From: a virus
Direction: 5' to 3' (one strand)
IMG/VR virus record: IMGVR_UViG_3300023179_000303
Location: 1-33,905 of that record
Length of the DNA stretch: 33,905 nt
Below the pieces are notes generated by a model. That model saw nothing but the letters and a program-made list of their open reading frames with translations. It ran no database searches and was not told the DNA's origin. The position numbers and the translations under genes were made by a program. Numbering within the stretch: the first letter of the stretch is position 1; each line of letters starts with the position of its first letter. Shown here one piece after another: positions 26,644 through 32,581 of this stretch.

Positions 26644-26851
26644 CGTCATGCTCCTTTTTTTCTGTAATTTTTTGAAGAAATAAATCGCCTTCAATCCCGC
26701 AAATGCCTCTGTTCCTGACAATGGAACACAATCCTGCTATGGGTTTTCCGTCGATAAGTGAGAGTTTTACTACTTGAGGCTGGTAGCAGTACGCATCATC
26801 CTGTACGTATTGCATCTTTTTGTGGTGGGCGCAGTTAATGCAGAGTTTCAT
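26627..26851 (-). CDS. Small cysteine-rich protein, probable zinc binder (74 aa)
   Basis: The ATG at 26851 has GAGGAG 9 nt upstream, within a repeated initiation module. A longer frame from 26902 lacks a ribosome site. The Cys residues are spaced as KLCINCAHH (CxxC then HH), DAYCYQP, GLCSIV and NRGICGIEGD, enough for one or two zinc sites. It leads the exonuclease/RecT transcription unit and overlaps the exonuclease start by 17 bp. It could be a regulator or a partner of the nuclease. The family is not recognised. Confidence 0.78.
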   Translation of the reverse strand: MKLCINCAHHKKMQYVQDDAYCYQPQVVKLSLIDGKPIAGLCSIVRNRGICGIEGDLFLQKITEKKEHDDGCAF

Positions 26852-26866
26852 AGTCACGGACTCCTC
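26849..26866 (-). promoter_or_regulatory. Repeated translation-initiation module, copy A
   Basis: On the minus strand GAGGAGTCCGTGACTATG joins the ribosome site to the start codon. Copies B (28390), C (29051) and D (29347) share AGTC(C/A)GTGACTATG with the same spacing. In C and D the spacer AGTCAGTGACT is a perfect dyad. It is likely a ribosome site plus operator or mRNA-binding element. Confidence 0.75.
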
Positions 26867-26906
26867 TAAAGTTTTCTTTAATTGCCAGCGTTGCACTGAC
26901 AACTAG

Positions 26907-27061: not shown

Positions 27062-27253
27062 GGATGGTGAGCAAAAACCTAGCCATCCTCATCAAGAATG
27101 ATTAGGTTCCTTCTTATGCTGGACGGAGCCGCACATAACCCGACAGTCTTTCGCTTATAGGCACTATCTTCGCCACCTATCCCGTTATCTCAAAGCTGCC
27201 CCACAGTAACGGTCTCCCCCACTCCCTGCCGTTGGTTTCCCCGACAGAGTGGG
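27062..27253. ncRNA. Candidate structured RNA region (serial stems and an interleaved stem pair)
   Basis: This stretch has no plausible gene but many paired segments. GGATGG (27062-27067) pairs with CCATCC (27083-27088) and AACCTA (27076-27081) with TAGGTT (27103-27108), interleaved as a pseudoknot. TTATG (27114) pairs with CATAA (27134), ATAGG (27157) with CCTAT (27176), CCGTTA (27182) with TAACGG (27207), and CCCACTC (27218) with GAGTGGG (27247). Most stems lie side by side. It is more GC-rich than its flanks. The strand and ends are uncertain. It could be a noncoding RNA, a trailer or a packaging/origin structure. Confidence 0.45.
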
Positions 27254-27271
27254 CGGTTAATTCAGAAGGAC

Positions 27272-28200: not shown

Positions 28201-28392
28201 TTAAAAATAAATTCCAGTTACATTTCCCACGATACTATTAAACTCATCGCAAAATTCTTTAAATTTTTCTTTGTTGTAGATTGTCTGCAAAATGCATCTT
28301 TGCTGAATTACCCATTGATGCAATTCATCCCTTCCTTCGTCACGGAAAACCTCGAAGGCATAGTCTATTAGTTTCGATTCGTATTCTTTCAT
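28201..28392 (-). CDS. Small acidic helical protein (63 aa)
   Basis: I use the ATG at 28392, 9 nt from GGGAG. A GTG two codons earlier (28398) is too close to the ribosome site. The protein is almost all helix: YESKLIDYAFEVFRDEGRDE, then LHQWVIQQRCILQTIYNKEK, then FCDEFNSIV. It is translated from a copy of the repeated initiation module (copy B). No family is recognised. Confidence 0.75.
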   Translation of the reverse strand: MKEYESKLIDYAFEVFRDEGRDELHQWVIQQRCILQTIYNKEKFKEFCDEFNSIVGNVTGIYF

Positions 28393-28407
28393 AGTCACGG
28401 ACTCCCT
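28390..28407 (-). promoter_or_regulatory. Repeated translation-initiation module, copy B
   Basis: AGGGAGTCCGTGACTATG on the minus strand. It shares the spacer and spacing of copies A, C and D. The AGGGAGT in it is also complementary over 7 nt to the C-rich loop of the candidate RNA at 29871-29932. Confidence 0.72.
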
Positions 28408-28411
28408 AAAT

Positions 28412-28427
28412 AGCCCCTTTCGGGGCT
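28412..28427 (-). terminator. GAAA-loop hairpin after the clamp-like gene
   Basis: AGCCCC (28412-28417) pairs with GGGGCT (28422-28427). The minus transcript has a GAAA loop and is followed by ATTTAGGGAG. With no real T-run it may act as an attenuator or stability hairpin between the clamp gene and the next ribosome site. It is similar to the one at 24413. Confidence 0.55.
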
Positions 28428-28432
28428 GTTGA

Positions 28433-29053
28433 TTAGATTGTAATAGATGGCAAAACCTTAGATGCTTCTACGTTTTCGGTTCGCATAGGCATAACCCACA
28501 CACACGTTTTGCCGTCGTAGTCAAGAACCGCAAACCCGCACCCTGACTCTTGTCCGGGCATGATGAAAGTGGTTTCCTTACTTCCTTTAATGATCTTGCC
28601 GGCTTTGTCTATCATCGCCACATAATCAGGGTCATAGAATGTATGGTTTTCAAGGTTTGTTTCATGCTTTGCTACCCTGCGCCAATCGGGAAAAATGCCC
28701 TCTTGTTCGTTTGTGAGCATGGATGAGCCTGAAGGATCGACAATTTCTATTTTGCGTAATTCGCCGGAGTATTTCCCGAATTTGTCGCCAAGATGAATCG
28801 TGAGTGTGCCTTTTTTCTTTTTTGCTATTTGCTCGGCAGTAGCATTAGAAATGATGATCTGACAATCCGGCCGTGGTATATCGTCGATTTGATGCACGCA
28901 TAATACATGGCCATTTGTGGCCACCAAGTAGGCGCCTTTCTCGCATGTTTCAACCATCACGCCGTTTAGATAATAGAGAATATCTTTTTTTGCAGAGAAA
29001 AGGCTGACTGCGGAAAATGTTGAAGCTTCGATGTTTAGGGAAATTGCTTGCAT
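28433..29053 (-). CDS. Two-domain sliding-clamp-like protein (DNA polymerase III beta homologue, truncated)
   Basis: 206 aa from the ATG at 29053. Bacterial beta-clamp motifs are visible in order: DILYYLNGVMVET (residues 24-36, compare DVRYYLNGMLFET in E. coli DnaN), LVATNGHVL (43-51, compare TVATDGHRL), FPDWRRV (121-127, compare FPDYRRV) and WVMPMR (186-191, compare YVVMPMR at the DnaN C-terminus). Only the equivalents of domains 2 and 3 are present, against three domains and 366 aa in E. coli. A closed ring would then need three subunits, as in PCNA or T4 gp45. It could be a true clamp or a decoy for host clamp partners. The assignment of homology is strong; the function is inferred. Confidence 0.85.
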   Translation of the reverse strand: MQAISLNIEASTFSAVSLFSAKKDILYYLNGVMVETCEKGAYLVATNGHVLCVHQIDDIPRPDCQIIISNATAEQIAKKKKGTLTIHLGDKFGKYSGELRKIEIVDPSGSSMLTNEQEGIFPDWRRVAKHETNLENHTFYDPDYVAMIDKAGKIIKGSKETTFIMPGQESGCGFAVLDYDGKTCVWVMPMRTENVEASKVLPSITI

Positions 29054-29067
29054 AGTCACTGACTCCT
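29051..29067 (-). promoter_or_regulatory. Repeated translation-initiation module, copy C
   Basis: AGGAGTCAGTGACTATG in front of the clamp gene. The spacer AGTCAGTGACT is a perfect dyad around a central G. The surrounding 49 bp (29030-29078) match copy D (29326-29374) at 45 positions, including the first codons of both genes. Confidence 0.78.
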
Positions 29068-29079
29068 TTTTAGTTGCTC

Positions 29080-29349
29080 TTATTCGTCATTCATGGTTTC
29101 GATGTCGAATCCATCAGCCGTGATGGTGACCACTTCGGTGTGGCCGGAGACACTATCCCAGCTCTTTATCTCGAAGCACATACCATTGCCGTTGTCGAAT
29201 GATTCTTCGGCTTCTGCAGCCCATGCGTGCAGCATGGATTCAGTGAAGTGTTCTTGGCCGAGCTTGTGGAACTGCCCCAAAGAGGATGAAATTTGGTTCA
29301 GGCCGTTGTTGTTGATGCGAGCGTTGATGTTTAGGGAAGTTGATTGCAT
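29080..29349 (-). CDS. First leftward early gene, acidic protein of unknown function (89 aa)
   Basis: I use the ATG at 29349, 9 nt from AGGAG. The product opens with MQSTSLNINA, closely like the clamp's MQAISLNIEA, then differs: LGQFHKLGQEHFTESMLHAW, then AEEAEESF-like acidic helix and a beta end (TEVVTITADGFDIETMNDE). It is the first gene after the strong leftward promoter, a place often used for proteins that act against host defences or transcription. No family is recognised. Confidence 0.78.
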   Translation of the reverse strand: MQSTSLNINARINNNGLNQISSSLGQFHKLGQEHFTESMLHAWAAEAEESFDNGNGMCFEIKSWDSVSGHTEVVTITADGFDIETMNDE

Positions 29350-29363
29350 AGTCACTGACTCCT
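29347..29363 (-). promoter_or_regulatory. Repeated translation-initiation module, copy D
   Basis: AGGAGTCAGTGACTATG again, in front of the first early gene and downstream of the strong promoter. It lies within the 49-bp duplicated segment shared with copy C. Confidence 0.78.
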
Positions 29364-29372
29364 ATTTGGTTG

Positions 29373-29426: not shown

Positions 29427-29857
29427 TGCTTTTTTAGAATTTATTTTATTTAGTTTGTTGTTTTTGTTGTTGCGCGATCTAGTTCTAATGCTCCGCCTCT
29501 AGTAACTAAATCTAGTATATATATTATATATAGGTAGTCTGTTAAGTAGTTTTGTTTGTTATTAGAGAGAAGCAATGTATTGTGAGAGAGAGACTGGGCT
29601 GGAAGTCATCAACCATCACACTCCCATAACAATTTTGATTGCTATTTTCTATCAATTACACGCCATTTAGGGGCACACATCGTAACATCTTTTGCCCTAT
29701 TTGAGCTTTACACTCGCTTAGAATTGCGTTGGAAATGGGCTTGATGTCGGGTGTCGATGATCGGAAATGTCGCGGAAGATGGCGCATGGATGGGCGATGG
29801 GGGGCGTCTTGGGCGTGACCCCCACACTCCTCCCCCCAAAAAAATTTCTAGTTTTTG
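29427..29857. other. Gene-free divergent control region
   Basis: No convincing reading frame on either strand. The left part is AT-rich with an almost alternating TATATATATTATATATAG tract (29515-29534) flanked by three CTAG tetranucleotides. The right part is unusually G-rich on the plus strand and contains TGGGGG...CCCCCA pairing at about 29798-29825, then a C-rich run and A7. It could hold a replication origin or packaging site. I see no iterated sites that settle it. Confidence 0.55.
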
Positions 29858-29866
29858 TGCTATATT
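29858..29866 (+). promoter_or_regulatory. Extended -10 promoter of the candidate small RNA
   Basis: TGCTATATT is an extended -10 element (TGn followed by TATATT). The -35 position is an A-run, which extended -10 promoters can tolerate. A start 6-8 nt later would begin the RNA at about 29871-29873. Confidence 0.6.
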
Positions 29867-29870
29867 GTGA

Positions 29871-29932
29871 GCATCACTCCCTCCCGTGATAAACCTGTTA
29901 CCGGCTTTTGTTGGTAGCAGGTTTTTTTTTAC
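29871..29932 (+). ncRNA. Candidate small RNA with C-rich loop and intrinsic terminator
   Basis: About 60 nt. A 5' hairpin, ATCAC (29874-29878 region) with GTGAT (29886-29890), displays a TCCCTCCC loop. A second hairpin (AACCTG-T-TACC with GGTA-G-CAGGTT, stem ends at 29892 and 29923) is followed by nine T. The segment 29872-29883 is perfectly complementary to 30260-30271, which covers the ribosome site and start of the MazG-like gene. No coding capacity is present. It could act in trans on ribosome sites, or be an attenuator for read-through transcripts. Confidence 0.6.
29892..29932 (+). terminator. Intrinsic terminator with T9 tract
   Basis: A stem of about 11 pairs including one G-T wobble, a loop of about 10 nt, then TTTTTTTTT. 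It is one of the strongest terminators in the window, yet no gene lies upstream on this strand. This supports a noncoding transcript ending here and isolates the late region from upstream readthrough. Confidence 0.88.
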
Positions 29933-29955
29933 CTTTTATTATCCTTAAAATAATA

Positions 29956-30002
29956 TATAATTCTAAAACCTATATTGTTATAGGTTTATTATTACTAATA
30001 AT
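29956..30002 (+). promoter_or_regulatory. Rightward promoter with two adjacent dyads
   Basis: A perfect TATAAT (29956-29961) lacks a good -35. Just downstream come AAACCTATA/TATAGGTTT (29966-29974 with 29979-29987, 9 bp, 4-nt loop) and the perfect palindrome ATTATTACTAATAAT (29988-30002). The first would form a hairpin at the very 5' end of the mRNA. The second could be an operator. The gene at 30017 follows. Confidence 0.6.
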
Positions 30003-30016
30003 CTAAGGATTAAAAT

Positions 30017-30247
30017 ATGTCTGAATATGTAATTGAGAAAGATGTGCCTGTACCTGCTCACGATGAGTCAAAGACTAAATACAGCAAGATGCCGCATAGG
30101 CACATGCAGGTAGGTGATTCTTTCTTGGCTGCGCTGGATAGGAAGAACAGTTTGAGCAATGCCAACAGCAGATACAAAAAGACACTAGGCTATGTATTCC
30201 GTACAGAAGAAGAAAATGGGATGCTGAGAACTTGGCGCGTAAAGTAG
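30017..30247 (+). CDS. First rightward gene, small conserved phage protein, possible regulator (76 aa)
   Basis: AAGGA lies in the leader before the ATG. The core, YSKMPHRHMQVGDSFLAALD, then a SNANSRYKKTLGYVFRTEEE helix-turn region, then GMLRTWRVK, resembles a small domain widespread in phages: M-x-V-G-D-S-F, a helix with S-A/N-A, and final W-R. It may bind nucleic acid. As the first gene after the dyads at 29966-30002 it could regulate its own promoter. Both points are inference. Confidence 0.75.
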   Translation: MSEYVIEKDVPVPAHDESKTKYSKMPHRHMQVGDSFLAALDRKNSLSNANSRYKKTLGYVFRTEEENGMLRTWRVK

Positions 30248-30265
30248 TTGTTTAATTAAGAGGGA

Positions 30266-30580
30266 GTGATGATGATAAATACATATCAGGATTTGGAACT
30301 CAAGATCATCAGGTGGGCTGAGGATAGGAAGATCATCCCTAATGCAAAACCTGTGAGTCAGTTGTTGAAGGCTGTGTCTGAGATGGGTGAGTTGGCTGAT
30401 GCTGAGAATAAGGGGGATATGGCCGCGATTAGGGATGCGGTAGGGGATGTGCTGGTGTGTCTTATCAATTACTGCGCGTTGCGTGATATTGGGGTTACGG
30501 AGTGCCTTTCTCTTGCATACGATGAGATTAAGGACAGGAAGGGCACGTTGTTGCCTTCTGGTGTTTTTGTAAAAGAATGA
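30266..30580 (+). CDS. MazG-like nucleoside triphosphate pyrophosphohydrolase
   Basis: About 100-104 aa. GTG 30266, ATG 30269 and ATG 30272 are consecutive possible starts after GAGGGAG. ATG 30272 has the best spacing. MazG-type enzymes hydrolyse NTPs to NMP and pyrophosphate, using Mg bound by E-x-x-E and D-x-x-D/G-D motifs. Here these are VSEMGELADAENKGD (the E-x-x-E helix, about 38-52) and IRDAVGDVLVCLINYC (about 56-71). The domain is single copy, as in phage MazG-like proteins that tune host metabolism or (p)ppGpp. Its initiation region is complementary to the small RNA candidate. Confidence 0.85.
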   Translation: MMMINTYQDLELKIIRWAEDRKIIPNAKPVSQLLKAVSEMGELADAENKGDMAAIRDAVGDVLVCLINYCALRDIGVTECLSLAYDEIKDRKGTLLPSGVFVKE

Positions 30581-30581
30581 G

Positions 30582-30821
30582 ATGAATAAGGCGTGGAGGA
30601 ATGTTGAGGAACATTTGTTCCTCACGAGGGCTAATCTTAAGAATGAGTTAACACGCGCTTCTAGGTGCAATAACAATGAAGAAAAAAAGAAACTGGTTGA
30701 AGATTGGAGGCGCAAGTATTCTGAGGTTTTCTTTTGTGAGTTACTTCGTTGCGCTCGTGATAAAAGGGTTATGTACTCTATTGCGAACTGGGATTTAGGC
30801 CAGCCGCCTTTCACGGATTAG
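30582..30821 (+). CDS. Small protein upstream of TerL, possible small terminase candidate (79 aa)
   Basis: Starts 1 bp after the MazG-like stop and ends 2 bp before TerL. It is highly charged and helical: EHLFLTRANLKNELTRASRC, then EKKKLVEDWRRKYSEVFFCE, then LLRCARDKRVMYS. No helix-turn-helix is obvious. Small terminases often sit directly before TerL and are short and helical, so position supports the idea, but the sequence alone does not. Three Cys are present without a zinc pattern. Confidence 0.72.
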   Translation: MNKAWRNVEEHLFLTRANLKNELTRASRCNNNEEKKKLVEDWRRKYSEVFFCELLRCARDKRVMYSIANWDLGQPPFTD

Positions 30822-30823
30822 TT

Positions 30824-32581
30824 ATGTCTAAATTCAATTTAAAACACTTTTATCATTTCTGCTCACAGTTGAGGATTGAGACAAAAGAGCAGGGGTTGCG
30901 CAAGATGGATGAACTCTTGGGGACTCAGACTTATGTGATGGATGAGATTGCTAAGGGTTTGAAGGATGACAAACATTTCTTTGTGATCCTGAAAGGCCGC
31001 CAGTTGGGTATAACGACGATTAGCCTTGCGTTAGACCTTTACTGGCAGTTTACCCATCCGGGGTGGCAGGGAACGCTTGTGAGCGATTCTGAGGAGAATA
31101 GGGATATGTTCCGTTCTACTCTTGACATGTATATGCAGGGGTTGGCGAAACAATACAAGATTCCTCTTGTTGCTCATAACAGAAATCAGATGGTGCTGAA
31201 GAACCGTAGCCGGTTGTTTTATCAGGTGGCGGGGAATAAGGCTCGGTTGGGGCAGGGTAAGGCGATTACTTATTTGCATGGTACTGAGGCTGCGTCTTGG
31301 CAGAATGAGGAGGGCTTGGCTTCGCTGATCGCTTCTCTGGCTGAAAACAATCCTGAGCGTCTTTATATCTTTGAGAGTACGGCTCGAGGGTTTAACAGTT
31401 TCCACGAGATGTACACCACTGCAAAACGCTCTAAAAGTCAGGTTGCTATCTTTTGTGGCTGGTGGAGAAATCAATTCTATTCTGCTGATCCTGATGGACA
31501 GATTTATAAGGTGTATTGGGATGGCCGGTTGACGCCGGAGGAAAAGGATTGGGTTAAAGATATAAAGAAGTTGTACAACGTCACGATCAATTCAAGACAG
31601 ATGGCGTGGTGGCGCTGGAAAATGCACGAGGGTATCAAGGATGAGGATTTGATGTATCAAGAGTTTCCGCCCACGGAGGATTACGCCTTTGTGATGACGG
31701 GGACTTCTTTCTTTTCCAATGCCAGATGTACAGACGCAGCCAAAGAAAGTAAGCGTCATTTGCCCGCGACTTATCGTTATGCTTTTGGTCAGTTGTTTCA
31801 GGACACGGAAGTATTGAAAAGCACAGAGAGACTGGCCACGCTCAAGATATGGGAGGAGCCGGTTAATAATGGTCATTATGTGATTGGTGCTGACCCGGCT
31901 TATGGTAGTAGCGATTGGGCTGATCGCTTCTGCATACAGGTTTACCGTTGTTATGCCGATGGTTTGGATCAAGTGGCCGAGTTTGCGACTTCTGATCTGA
32001 ATACCTATCAGTTCGCGTGGGTGATCGCTCACCTTGCGGGGGCGTACAAAAACGCTATTCTGAACCTTGAGATTAACGGGCCCGGGCAGGCCGTATATAA
32101 CGAACTGACAAACCTTAGAAGGATGGCTTCTGCGATGGAGGGGGCTTCAGGGCGTGGGTTGATGGATGTGCTAGGCAGTATGCAGAACTACATTTGGAGG
32201 CGCAACGACAGCCTTTCTGGGCCTTCTAATAGCAAGGGCTGGATGACGACACAAAGCACGAAGGAACGCATGATGTCGTACATGAAAGACTTTTTTGAGC
32301 GTCAGATGATGAATATTTATTCTATGGATTGTCTGGACGAGATGAAAACCATCGTGCGGGATGGCGGCAGTATTCTTGCGCCTGGCAGAAACAAGGATGA
32401 TCGCGTAATTGCTTCTGCGCTGGCTGTGGTTGCGTTTGCAGAGCAGTTACAACCGCGACTTATCATGTCGCGCGAAACAAGGGCAGTCAGTAAGGCAAAC
32501 GAGGACAAGACGCCAGAGGAAATATCTATTGGTAGGAATGTTAGTGATTACTTAAAGAGGGTGGGGCTATATGGATCATAA
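30824..32581 (+). CDS. Terminase large subunit (TerL)
   Basis: 585 aa. The ATPase part shows a Walker A variant, LKGRQLGITT (residues 56-65), a Walker B region ITYLHGTEAASW with the catalytic Glu (about 148-159), and the coupling motif IFESTARGFN (about 182-191). The nuclease part shows GADPAYGSSDWADRF (Asp357 first metal ligand), LEINGPGQ (acidic second ligand), and a C-terminal KDDRVIASALAVVAF (third acidic ligand). All key elements appear intact. The motor drives DNA into the prohead through the portal encoded across the junction. The 3' end overlaps the methyltransferase by 11 bp. Confidence 0.95.
   Translation: MSKFNLKHFYHFCSQLRIETKEQGLRKMDELLGTQTYVMDEIAKGLKDDKHFFVILKGRQLGITTISLALDLYWQFTHPGWQGTLVSDSEENRDMFRSTLDMYMQGLAKQYKIPLVAHNRNQMVLKNRSRLFYQVAGNKARLGQGKAITYLHGTEAASWQNEEGLASLIASLAENNPERLYIFESTARGFNSFHEMYTTAKRSKSQVAIFCGWWRNQFYSADPDGQIYKVYWDGRLTPEEKDWVKDIKKLYNVTINSRQMAWWRWKMHEGIKDEDLMYQEFPPTEDYAFVMTGTSFFSNARCTDAAKESKRHLPATYRYAFGQLFQDTEVLKSTERLATLKIWEEPVNNGHYVIGADPAYGSSDWADRFCIQVYRCYADGLDQVAEFATSDLNTYQFAWVIAHLAGAYKNAILNLEINGPGQAVYNELTNLRRMASAMEGASGRGLMDVLGSMQNYIWRRNDSLSGPSNSKGWMTTQSTKERMMSYMKDFFERQMMNIYSMDCLDEMKTIVRDGGSILAPGRNKDDRVIASALAVVAFAEQLQPRLIMSRETRAVSKANEDKTPEEISIGRNVSDYLKRVGLYGS

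What the first reader, a model, noticed from the sequence alone, without database searches (positions are those of the whole stretch)
29858..29932. Orphan small RNA with an anti-Shine-Dalgarno loop matching the MazG-like gene start
Between the divergent blocks lies a complete transcription unit without a gene: extended -10 (TGCTATATT), a 5' hairpin with a TCCCTCCC loop, and an intrinsic terminator with T9. Bases 29872-29883 are perfectly complementary over 12 nt to 30260-30271, which includes the ribosome site and start codons of the MazG-like gene. The loop also pairs over 7 nt with the ribosome site of the gene at 28392. Part of the match is expected, because any ribosome site resembles GGAGG, but it extends into GTGATG beyond that core. 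It may be a phage regulatory RNA of the C-rich-loop type, or an attenuator.
Basis: partly seen in the sequence, partly recalled or inferred. Interest (0 to 1): 0.75.

Follow-up and report, generated by a model that had tools for sequence, protein, structure and literature searches.

The report
Conserved phage orphan small RNA
A phage and many of its relatives carry a tiny stand-alone RNA gene just in front of their DNA-packaging genes; in this phage its exposed C-rich loop could block ribosome binding on a nearby MazG-like gene, but that particular target is not conserved in the relatives.

Summary
In detail: an extended -10, a 5-bp hairpin with a UCCCUCCC loop, a terminator with T9, and a perfect 12-nt complement to the mazG-like ribosome site. 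Comparison adds more. Contigs with related terminases share the order: conserved G/C-rich block, orphan RNA unit, ORF76, ORF79, terL. In 81 of 108 non-redundant contigs a terminator lies between block and ORF76. Most of these RNAs carry GCAGTTG(C/T)C; the window's own clade carries CUCC-rich, anti-Shine-Dalgarno-like motifs. In 61 of 81 units the terminator also supplies the -35 and spacer of a second promoter (2.7% in shuffles). Rfam has no such family. The RNA unit is therefore real and recurrent. The mazG match is the best in its genome (-17.3 kcal/mol; none of 1170 background sites reaches it). But relatives lack mazG at this place, RNAs of 22 relatives show no excess pairing to their own ribosome sites, and in the one testable pair RNA and site changed independently. 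Verdict: a probable regulatory small RNA; the mazG target is plausible but unproven.

The parts
29785..29857 (+). Conserved DNA block upstream of the RNA: GGG..GGGCGTGACCCCCAC-N6-CCCCCC-A/T-rich; also present in relatives that lack the RNA, so an independent element (cos or promoter-region candidate)
   Evidence: blastn and profile hits in more than 80 contigs
29858..29866 (+). Extended -10 promoter TGCTATATT of the small RNA; relatives have TGGTAGACT and the like at the matching place
   Evidence: sequence; homologous placement in relatives
29871..29930 (+). Orphan small RNA, about 58-60 nt (5' end inferred)
   Evidence: promoter, fold z = -6.7, terminator; recurrent unit in relatives
29873..29890 (+). 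5' hairpin AUCAC-UCCCUCCC-GUGAU; the anti-Shine-Dalgarno-like loop is 29878-29885
   Evidence: CUCC-rich counterparts in L083, L116, L221, L280, L314, L315
29891..29930 (+). Intrinsic terminator (15 pairs, loop TTTT) with T9
30017..30247 (+). ORF76, small conserved phage protein of unknown function, first gene after the RNA unit in relatives
30260..30271 (+). Predicted target: ribosome site and start codons of the mazG-like gene, 12-nt complement of 29872-29883
30266..30580 (+). MazG-like pyrophosphohydrolase gene (start GTG 30266, or ATG 30269/30272), an insertion in the variable slot between ORF76 and ORF79
   Evidence: PHROG and Pfam MazG hits; absent at this place in relatives
30582..30821 (+). 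ORF79, conserved next to terL (terminase small subunit candidate, by position only)
30824..32581 (+). Terminase large subunit gene, used as the anchor for relatives

Best explanation
29871-29930 is a genuine stand-alone small RNA gene, one lineage-specific form of an RNA unit that sits between a conserved DNA block and the ORF76-terminase operon in a large group of related phages. It is transcribed from its own extended -10 promoter and ends at an intrinsic terminator. It most likely acts in trans by base pairing: an exposed 5' seed (GCAGUUGYC in most relatives, a CUCC-rich anti-Shine-Dalgarno stretch in this clade) binds mRNA. In this phage the best predicted target is the start region of the downstream mazG-like mRNA: the loop would nucleate on GAGGGAG, then the AUCAC arm would open and pair with the start codons, blocking initiation. 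Shown by sequence and comparison: promoter, hairpin, terminator, recurrence, seed classes, the 12-nt complement. Inferred: transcription, base-pairing mode, mazG repression. Rough likelihoods: transcription unit 0.85, base-pairing regulator 0.5, mazG a real target 0.3.
For: All parts verified. A terminator lies in the same slot in 81 of 108 non-redundant contigs, 61 of these 81 with an extended -10. A short motif, GCAGTTG(C/T)C, is kept across diverged sequences, and hairpins with different stems enclose it more often than in shuffles (14 against 5.8 +/- 2.2 of 40). In RNA-less relatives motif and terminator are absent together while the DNA block stays. The window and its nearest relatives L083 and L116 all have CUCC-rich RNAs, as does the nearby group L221/L280/L314/L315, and these stretches fold as unpaired or loop. 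mazG is the top site of the genome by pairing.
Against: No transcript data. mazG is absent from this slot in the relatives, so conservation of the pair cannot be tested. RNAs of 22 relatives do not pair better with their own start sites than with those of other phages. The complement of GCAGTTGCC is not enriched in phage genomes. In the L314/L315 pair, RNA and best site changed without compensation. The RNA is missing in some lineages.
Confidence: 0.5

Rival explanations
1. Cis-acting control: the promoter-terminator pair is a late-operon switch as in lambda pR'-tR'. RNA polymerase stops at the terminator until a phage factor lets it read into ORF76-mazG-terL (or it interferes with the promoter that overlaps the terminator), and the short RNA is mainly a by-product.
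For: Position directly ahead of the rightward structural operon, same strand, short leader and strong terminator.
Against: In 61 of 81 units the terminator overlaps a TTGnnn-17-TAnnnT promoter for the downstream operon (2.7% in shuffles), so read-through is not needed there; no antiterminator was recognised among the proteins searched; a kept RNA motif is not explained.
Confidence: 0.25
2. The RNA belongs to the DNA-processing function of the neighbouring block (packaging or replication start), for example as a packaging RNA or an origin transcript.
For: The block is highly conserved and lies near the GC-skew switch at the divergent junction; HNH-endonuclease-like frames precede the unit in some relatives (read by eye).
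Against: The block is kept where the RNA is missing, and the spacing between block and RNA motif varies widely.
Confidence: 0.1
3. The RNA is transcribed but its targets are host mRNAs or host small RNAs; the mazG complement is a chance result of an anti-SD loop meeting a purine-rich ribosome site.
For: No own-genome pairing excess in relatives; a single short motif is kept across many phages, as expected if the partner is a conserved host RNA; a similar start site GAGGGAGTGAT occurs in L156, a phage with another seed.
Against: The 12-nt run is rarer than an anti-SD core alone predicts (1 of 2000); no host target was identified here.
Confidence: 0.35

Closest known systems
StxS small RNA of Shiga-toxin lambdoid phages (PMC7873438, PMC12197685)
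   Same: Phage small RNA made from a promoter-terminator pair ahead of the late genes; binds a ribosome site of a phage gene to silence translation (as reported in PMC7873438).
   Different: StxS is processed by RNase E and binds Hfq, and its unit is part of pR'-tR' antitermination; here the downstream operon of most relatives has its own promoter overlapping the terminator. No sequence relation was found or tested.
C-rich-loop small RNAs such as mycobacterial B11 and 6C (PMC12395582 and references in it)
   Same: Exposed C-rich loop that pairs with ribosome sites.
   Different: Chromosomal small RNAs of mycobacteria; the C-rich loop of B11 lies in its terminator, here it is in a separate 5' hairpin.
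Alphaproteobacterial small RNAs with CCUCCUCCC motifs (PMC10746234, PMC3927594)
   Same: Anti-SD-like C-rich motif in a trans-encoded small RNA (recalled; only search listings seen here).
   Different: Bacterial chromosomal families; no homology shown, no Rfam match.

Membership tests
Any Rfam 15 RNA family | Covariance-model score at or above the family's gathering score | tested here: not met
   No match at 29780-30020 at gathering; the best listed matches are far below threshold. Relatives' units likewise.
Intrinsically terminated small RNA | Own promoter and Rho-independent terminator, no ORF | tested here: met
   recurrent in relatives. Transcription itself is untested.
C-rich-loop (anti-SD) base-pairing small RNA | Unpaired C-rich seed | tested here: met
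   Loop UCCCUCCC unpaired in the predicted fold.
C-rich-loop (anti-SD) base-pairing small RNA | Conserved or compensatory pairing with a target ribosome site | tested here: not met
   No own-genome excess in relatives; no compensation in L314/L315. Not testable for mazG itself.
Lambda pR'-tR' / StxS type late leader | Downstream late genes depend on read-through of the terminator | tested here: inconclusive
   A second promoter overlaps the terminator in 61 of 81 units, but only weakly in the window.
Lambda pR'-tR' / StxS type late leader | Q- or N-like antiterminator gene | tested here: inconclusive
   None recognised among the window proteins searched, but several small proteins have no match and not every ORF was searched.
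Hfq- or ProQ-dependent small RNA | Chaperone binding | not testable with these tools
   Needs pulldown or crosslinking.

The most novel reading that the evidence does not exclude
A new family of phage riboregulators: a cassette ahead of the packaging operon, whose terminator doubles as part of the next promoter, makes a short RNA with an exchangeable seed (GCAGUUGYC or anti-Shine-Dalgarno CUCC) that silences host or phage mRNAs, each lineage acquiring its own targets, such as mazG here.
Probability: 0.25. Interest if true: 0.7.

Novelty: new variant of a known kind. Interest (0 to 1): 0.5.

Why it matters
If expressed, this is a widespread small RNA of environmental phages, absent from Rfam, found at a fixed place next to the packaging genes. 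It gives a concrete place to look in infection transcriptomes. The overlapping terminator and promoter is a compact regulatory layout, and the two seed classes offer a natural experiment on how phage RNAs choose targets.

Tried and rejected
1) MazG homologues (80 loci): those inspected lie in other genomic contexts and did not help. 2) The exact hairpin core CACTCCCTCCCGTG elsewhere: 59 contigs, none with the conserved block. 3) A conserved phage target for GCAGTTGCC: the complement is not enriched; an apparent hit in a Cys-rich mini-protein gene lies at its 3' end and varies, so it was dropped. 4) A leftward zinc-ribbon-like gene of L314 as a co-evolving target: 11-nt match, but L315 shows no compensation. 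5) Rfam membership: none. 6) A tRNA inside the L130 insertion was suspected by eye; ARAGORN finds none. 7) Alignment A2 was not used for pair counting because MAFFT put the stems out of register; a shuffle test was used instead. 8) The first chance estimate was spoiled by loci chosen for the pattern itself and was redone without them.

Full report
What was checked. The window is a 33.9-kb virus record. Only two metagenome-derived circular genomes among the phage records share its terminase above 70% identity. The reported features are all present at the stated places: TGCTATATT at 29858-29866, hairpin AUCAC-UCCCUCCC-GUGAU, terminator 29891-29924 with T9. The last leftward gene starts at 29355 and the rightward genes begin at 30017, so the unit lies between divergent blocks.

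Is the mazG match more than chance? A 12-nt Watson-Crick run occurs at none of 3732 background start-like sites, and with the anti-SD core kept but flanks random it arises against this window in 1 of 2000 trials. With accessibility included, mazG gives -17.3 kcal/mol, first of 46 sites in the window and below all 1170 background sites. With about 46 sites tested I judge it at p of roughly 0.01-0.05. In the same kind of test one other phage of 22 (G001) also has an own site lower than all 500 foreign sites sampled, so single strong matches occur without further support.

Relatives. Searches with terL, the upstream block and ORF76 gave over 200 loci. The order block - RNA unit - ORF76 - (variable genes) - ORF79 - terL is kept, and a MazG homologue in the variable slot was seen only in this window. 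Of 108 non-redundant contigs with the block, 81 have a terminator of -8 kcal/mol or better between block and ORF76; some others (L083, L121, L222, L318) appear by eye to have one that the strict rule missed. 54 of the 81 carry GCAGTTG, 7 a looser NGTTGY, 15 a CUCC-type motif without it, 5 neither. The classes come from simple patterns and some are misassigned: the GTTG label of L337 and L355 comes from the terminator loop, and L083 had to be corrected by hand.

RNA rather than DNA site. In relatives without the RNA the motif and the terminator are both missing although the block stays. Hairpins with different stems surround the motif more often than in shuffles, 14 against 5.8 +/- 2.2 of 40. 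The hairpin is not universal, so the constant feature is the exposed sequence.

The window's clade. On the terL tree the window groups with L083 (support 100) and L116 (90); L221, L280, L314 and L315 form another group in the same larger clade. All of these carry CUCC-rich stretches: CTCCCTCCC in the window, CTCCTTCCTCC in L083, CTCCTCCC in L116, CTCTCCTCCCCC in L221, CTCCTCC in L280, L314 and L315. Folding leaves them largely unpaired or in loops, though part of the stretch is paired in L280 and L314. L083 reads GTTGTCTCCTTCCTCC and others read GCAGTTGTCTCC, which bridges the two seed classes. The tree is a FastTree run with local support only.

Terminator and promoter overlap. In 61 of 81 units TTGnnn-17-TAnnnT begins inside the terminator, with the U-tract as part of the spacer; shuffles give 2.7%. 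The downstream operon would then have its own promoter, which weakens the lambda-like attenuator reading. The window has only a poor version, and its AT-rich leader may hold other promoters.

Targets. Own-versus-foreign comparisons in 22 relatives show no excess, by run length or by co-folding. Some of these contigs are partial. In L314 an 11-nt match falls on the start of a leftward gene that has a 76% identical homologue in L315, but L315, whose RNA differs, shows no compensation.

Mechanism and verdict. A stand-alone small RNA is well supported by comparison. Base pairing through an exposed seed is the most economical role, in line with StxS (PMC7873438) and C-rich-loop small RNAs (PMC12395582). 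Control of mazG is possible and testable but not shown. Transcription, 5' end, stability and chaperone dependence are inferred or untested.

Noticed in passing
window 27138-27255 (- strand); also L120 1241-1356 and L131 859-974: Strong Rfam match to Betaproteobacteria-1 RNA (RF02932, 102 bits), a second non-coding RNA in the same phage; two relatives have it too. It holds AGGGAGTG, an 8-nt complement of the orphan RNA's CACTCCCT.
   Followed up: partly
window 29785-29857 and the matching block in more than 80 contigs: G/C-rich block GTGNCCCCCAC-N6-CCCCCC is conserved with or without the RNA; a few contigs (L226, L283, L095, L239) begin inside or at it. It may be the cos site.
   Followed up: partly
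window 26846-26873, 28387-28414, 29048-29075, 29344-29371: Four leftward genes share a nearly identical leader GGAGTC(A/C)GTGACTATG (repeat family D2), perhaps a common translational control site.
   Followed up: no
L094, L097, L099, L101, L130 (two copies), L137 within the RNA unit: Insertion with constant ends ACACGCATGGGGA...TCCCCAGCCGTGT, complementary to each other, and a variable middle; no Rfam match in L097.
   Followed up: partly
L005, L006, L012, L017, L078, L269: Recurrent structured-looking element GAAAGCGGATGCTG...CAGCGAGTA with pairing flanks, near MazG genes in other phages; 11 distinct copies in the loci, no Rfam family reaches its threshold.
   Followed up: partly
G001, G002, G003, G010, L047: Tiny secreted-looking cysteine-rich protein ending CTTCCYFGNCTTNCY or similar in several phages.
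   Followed up: no
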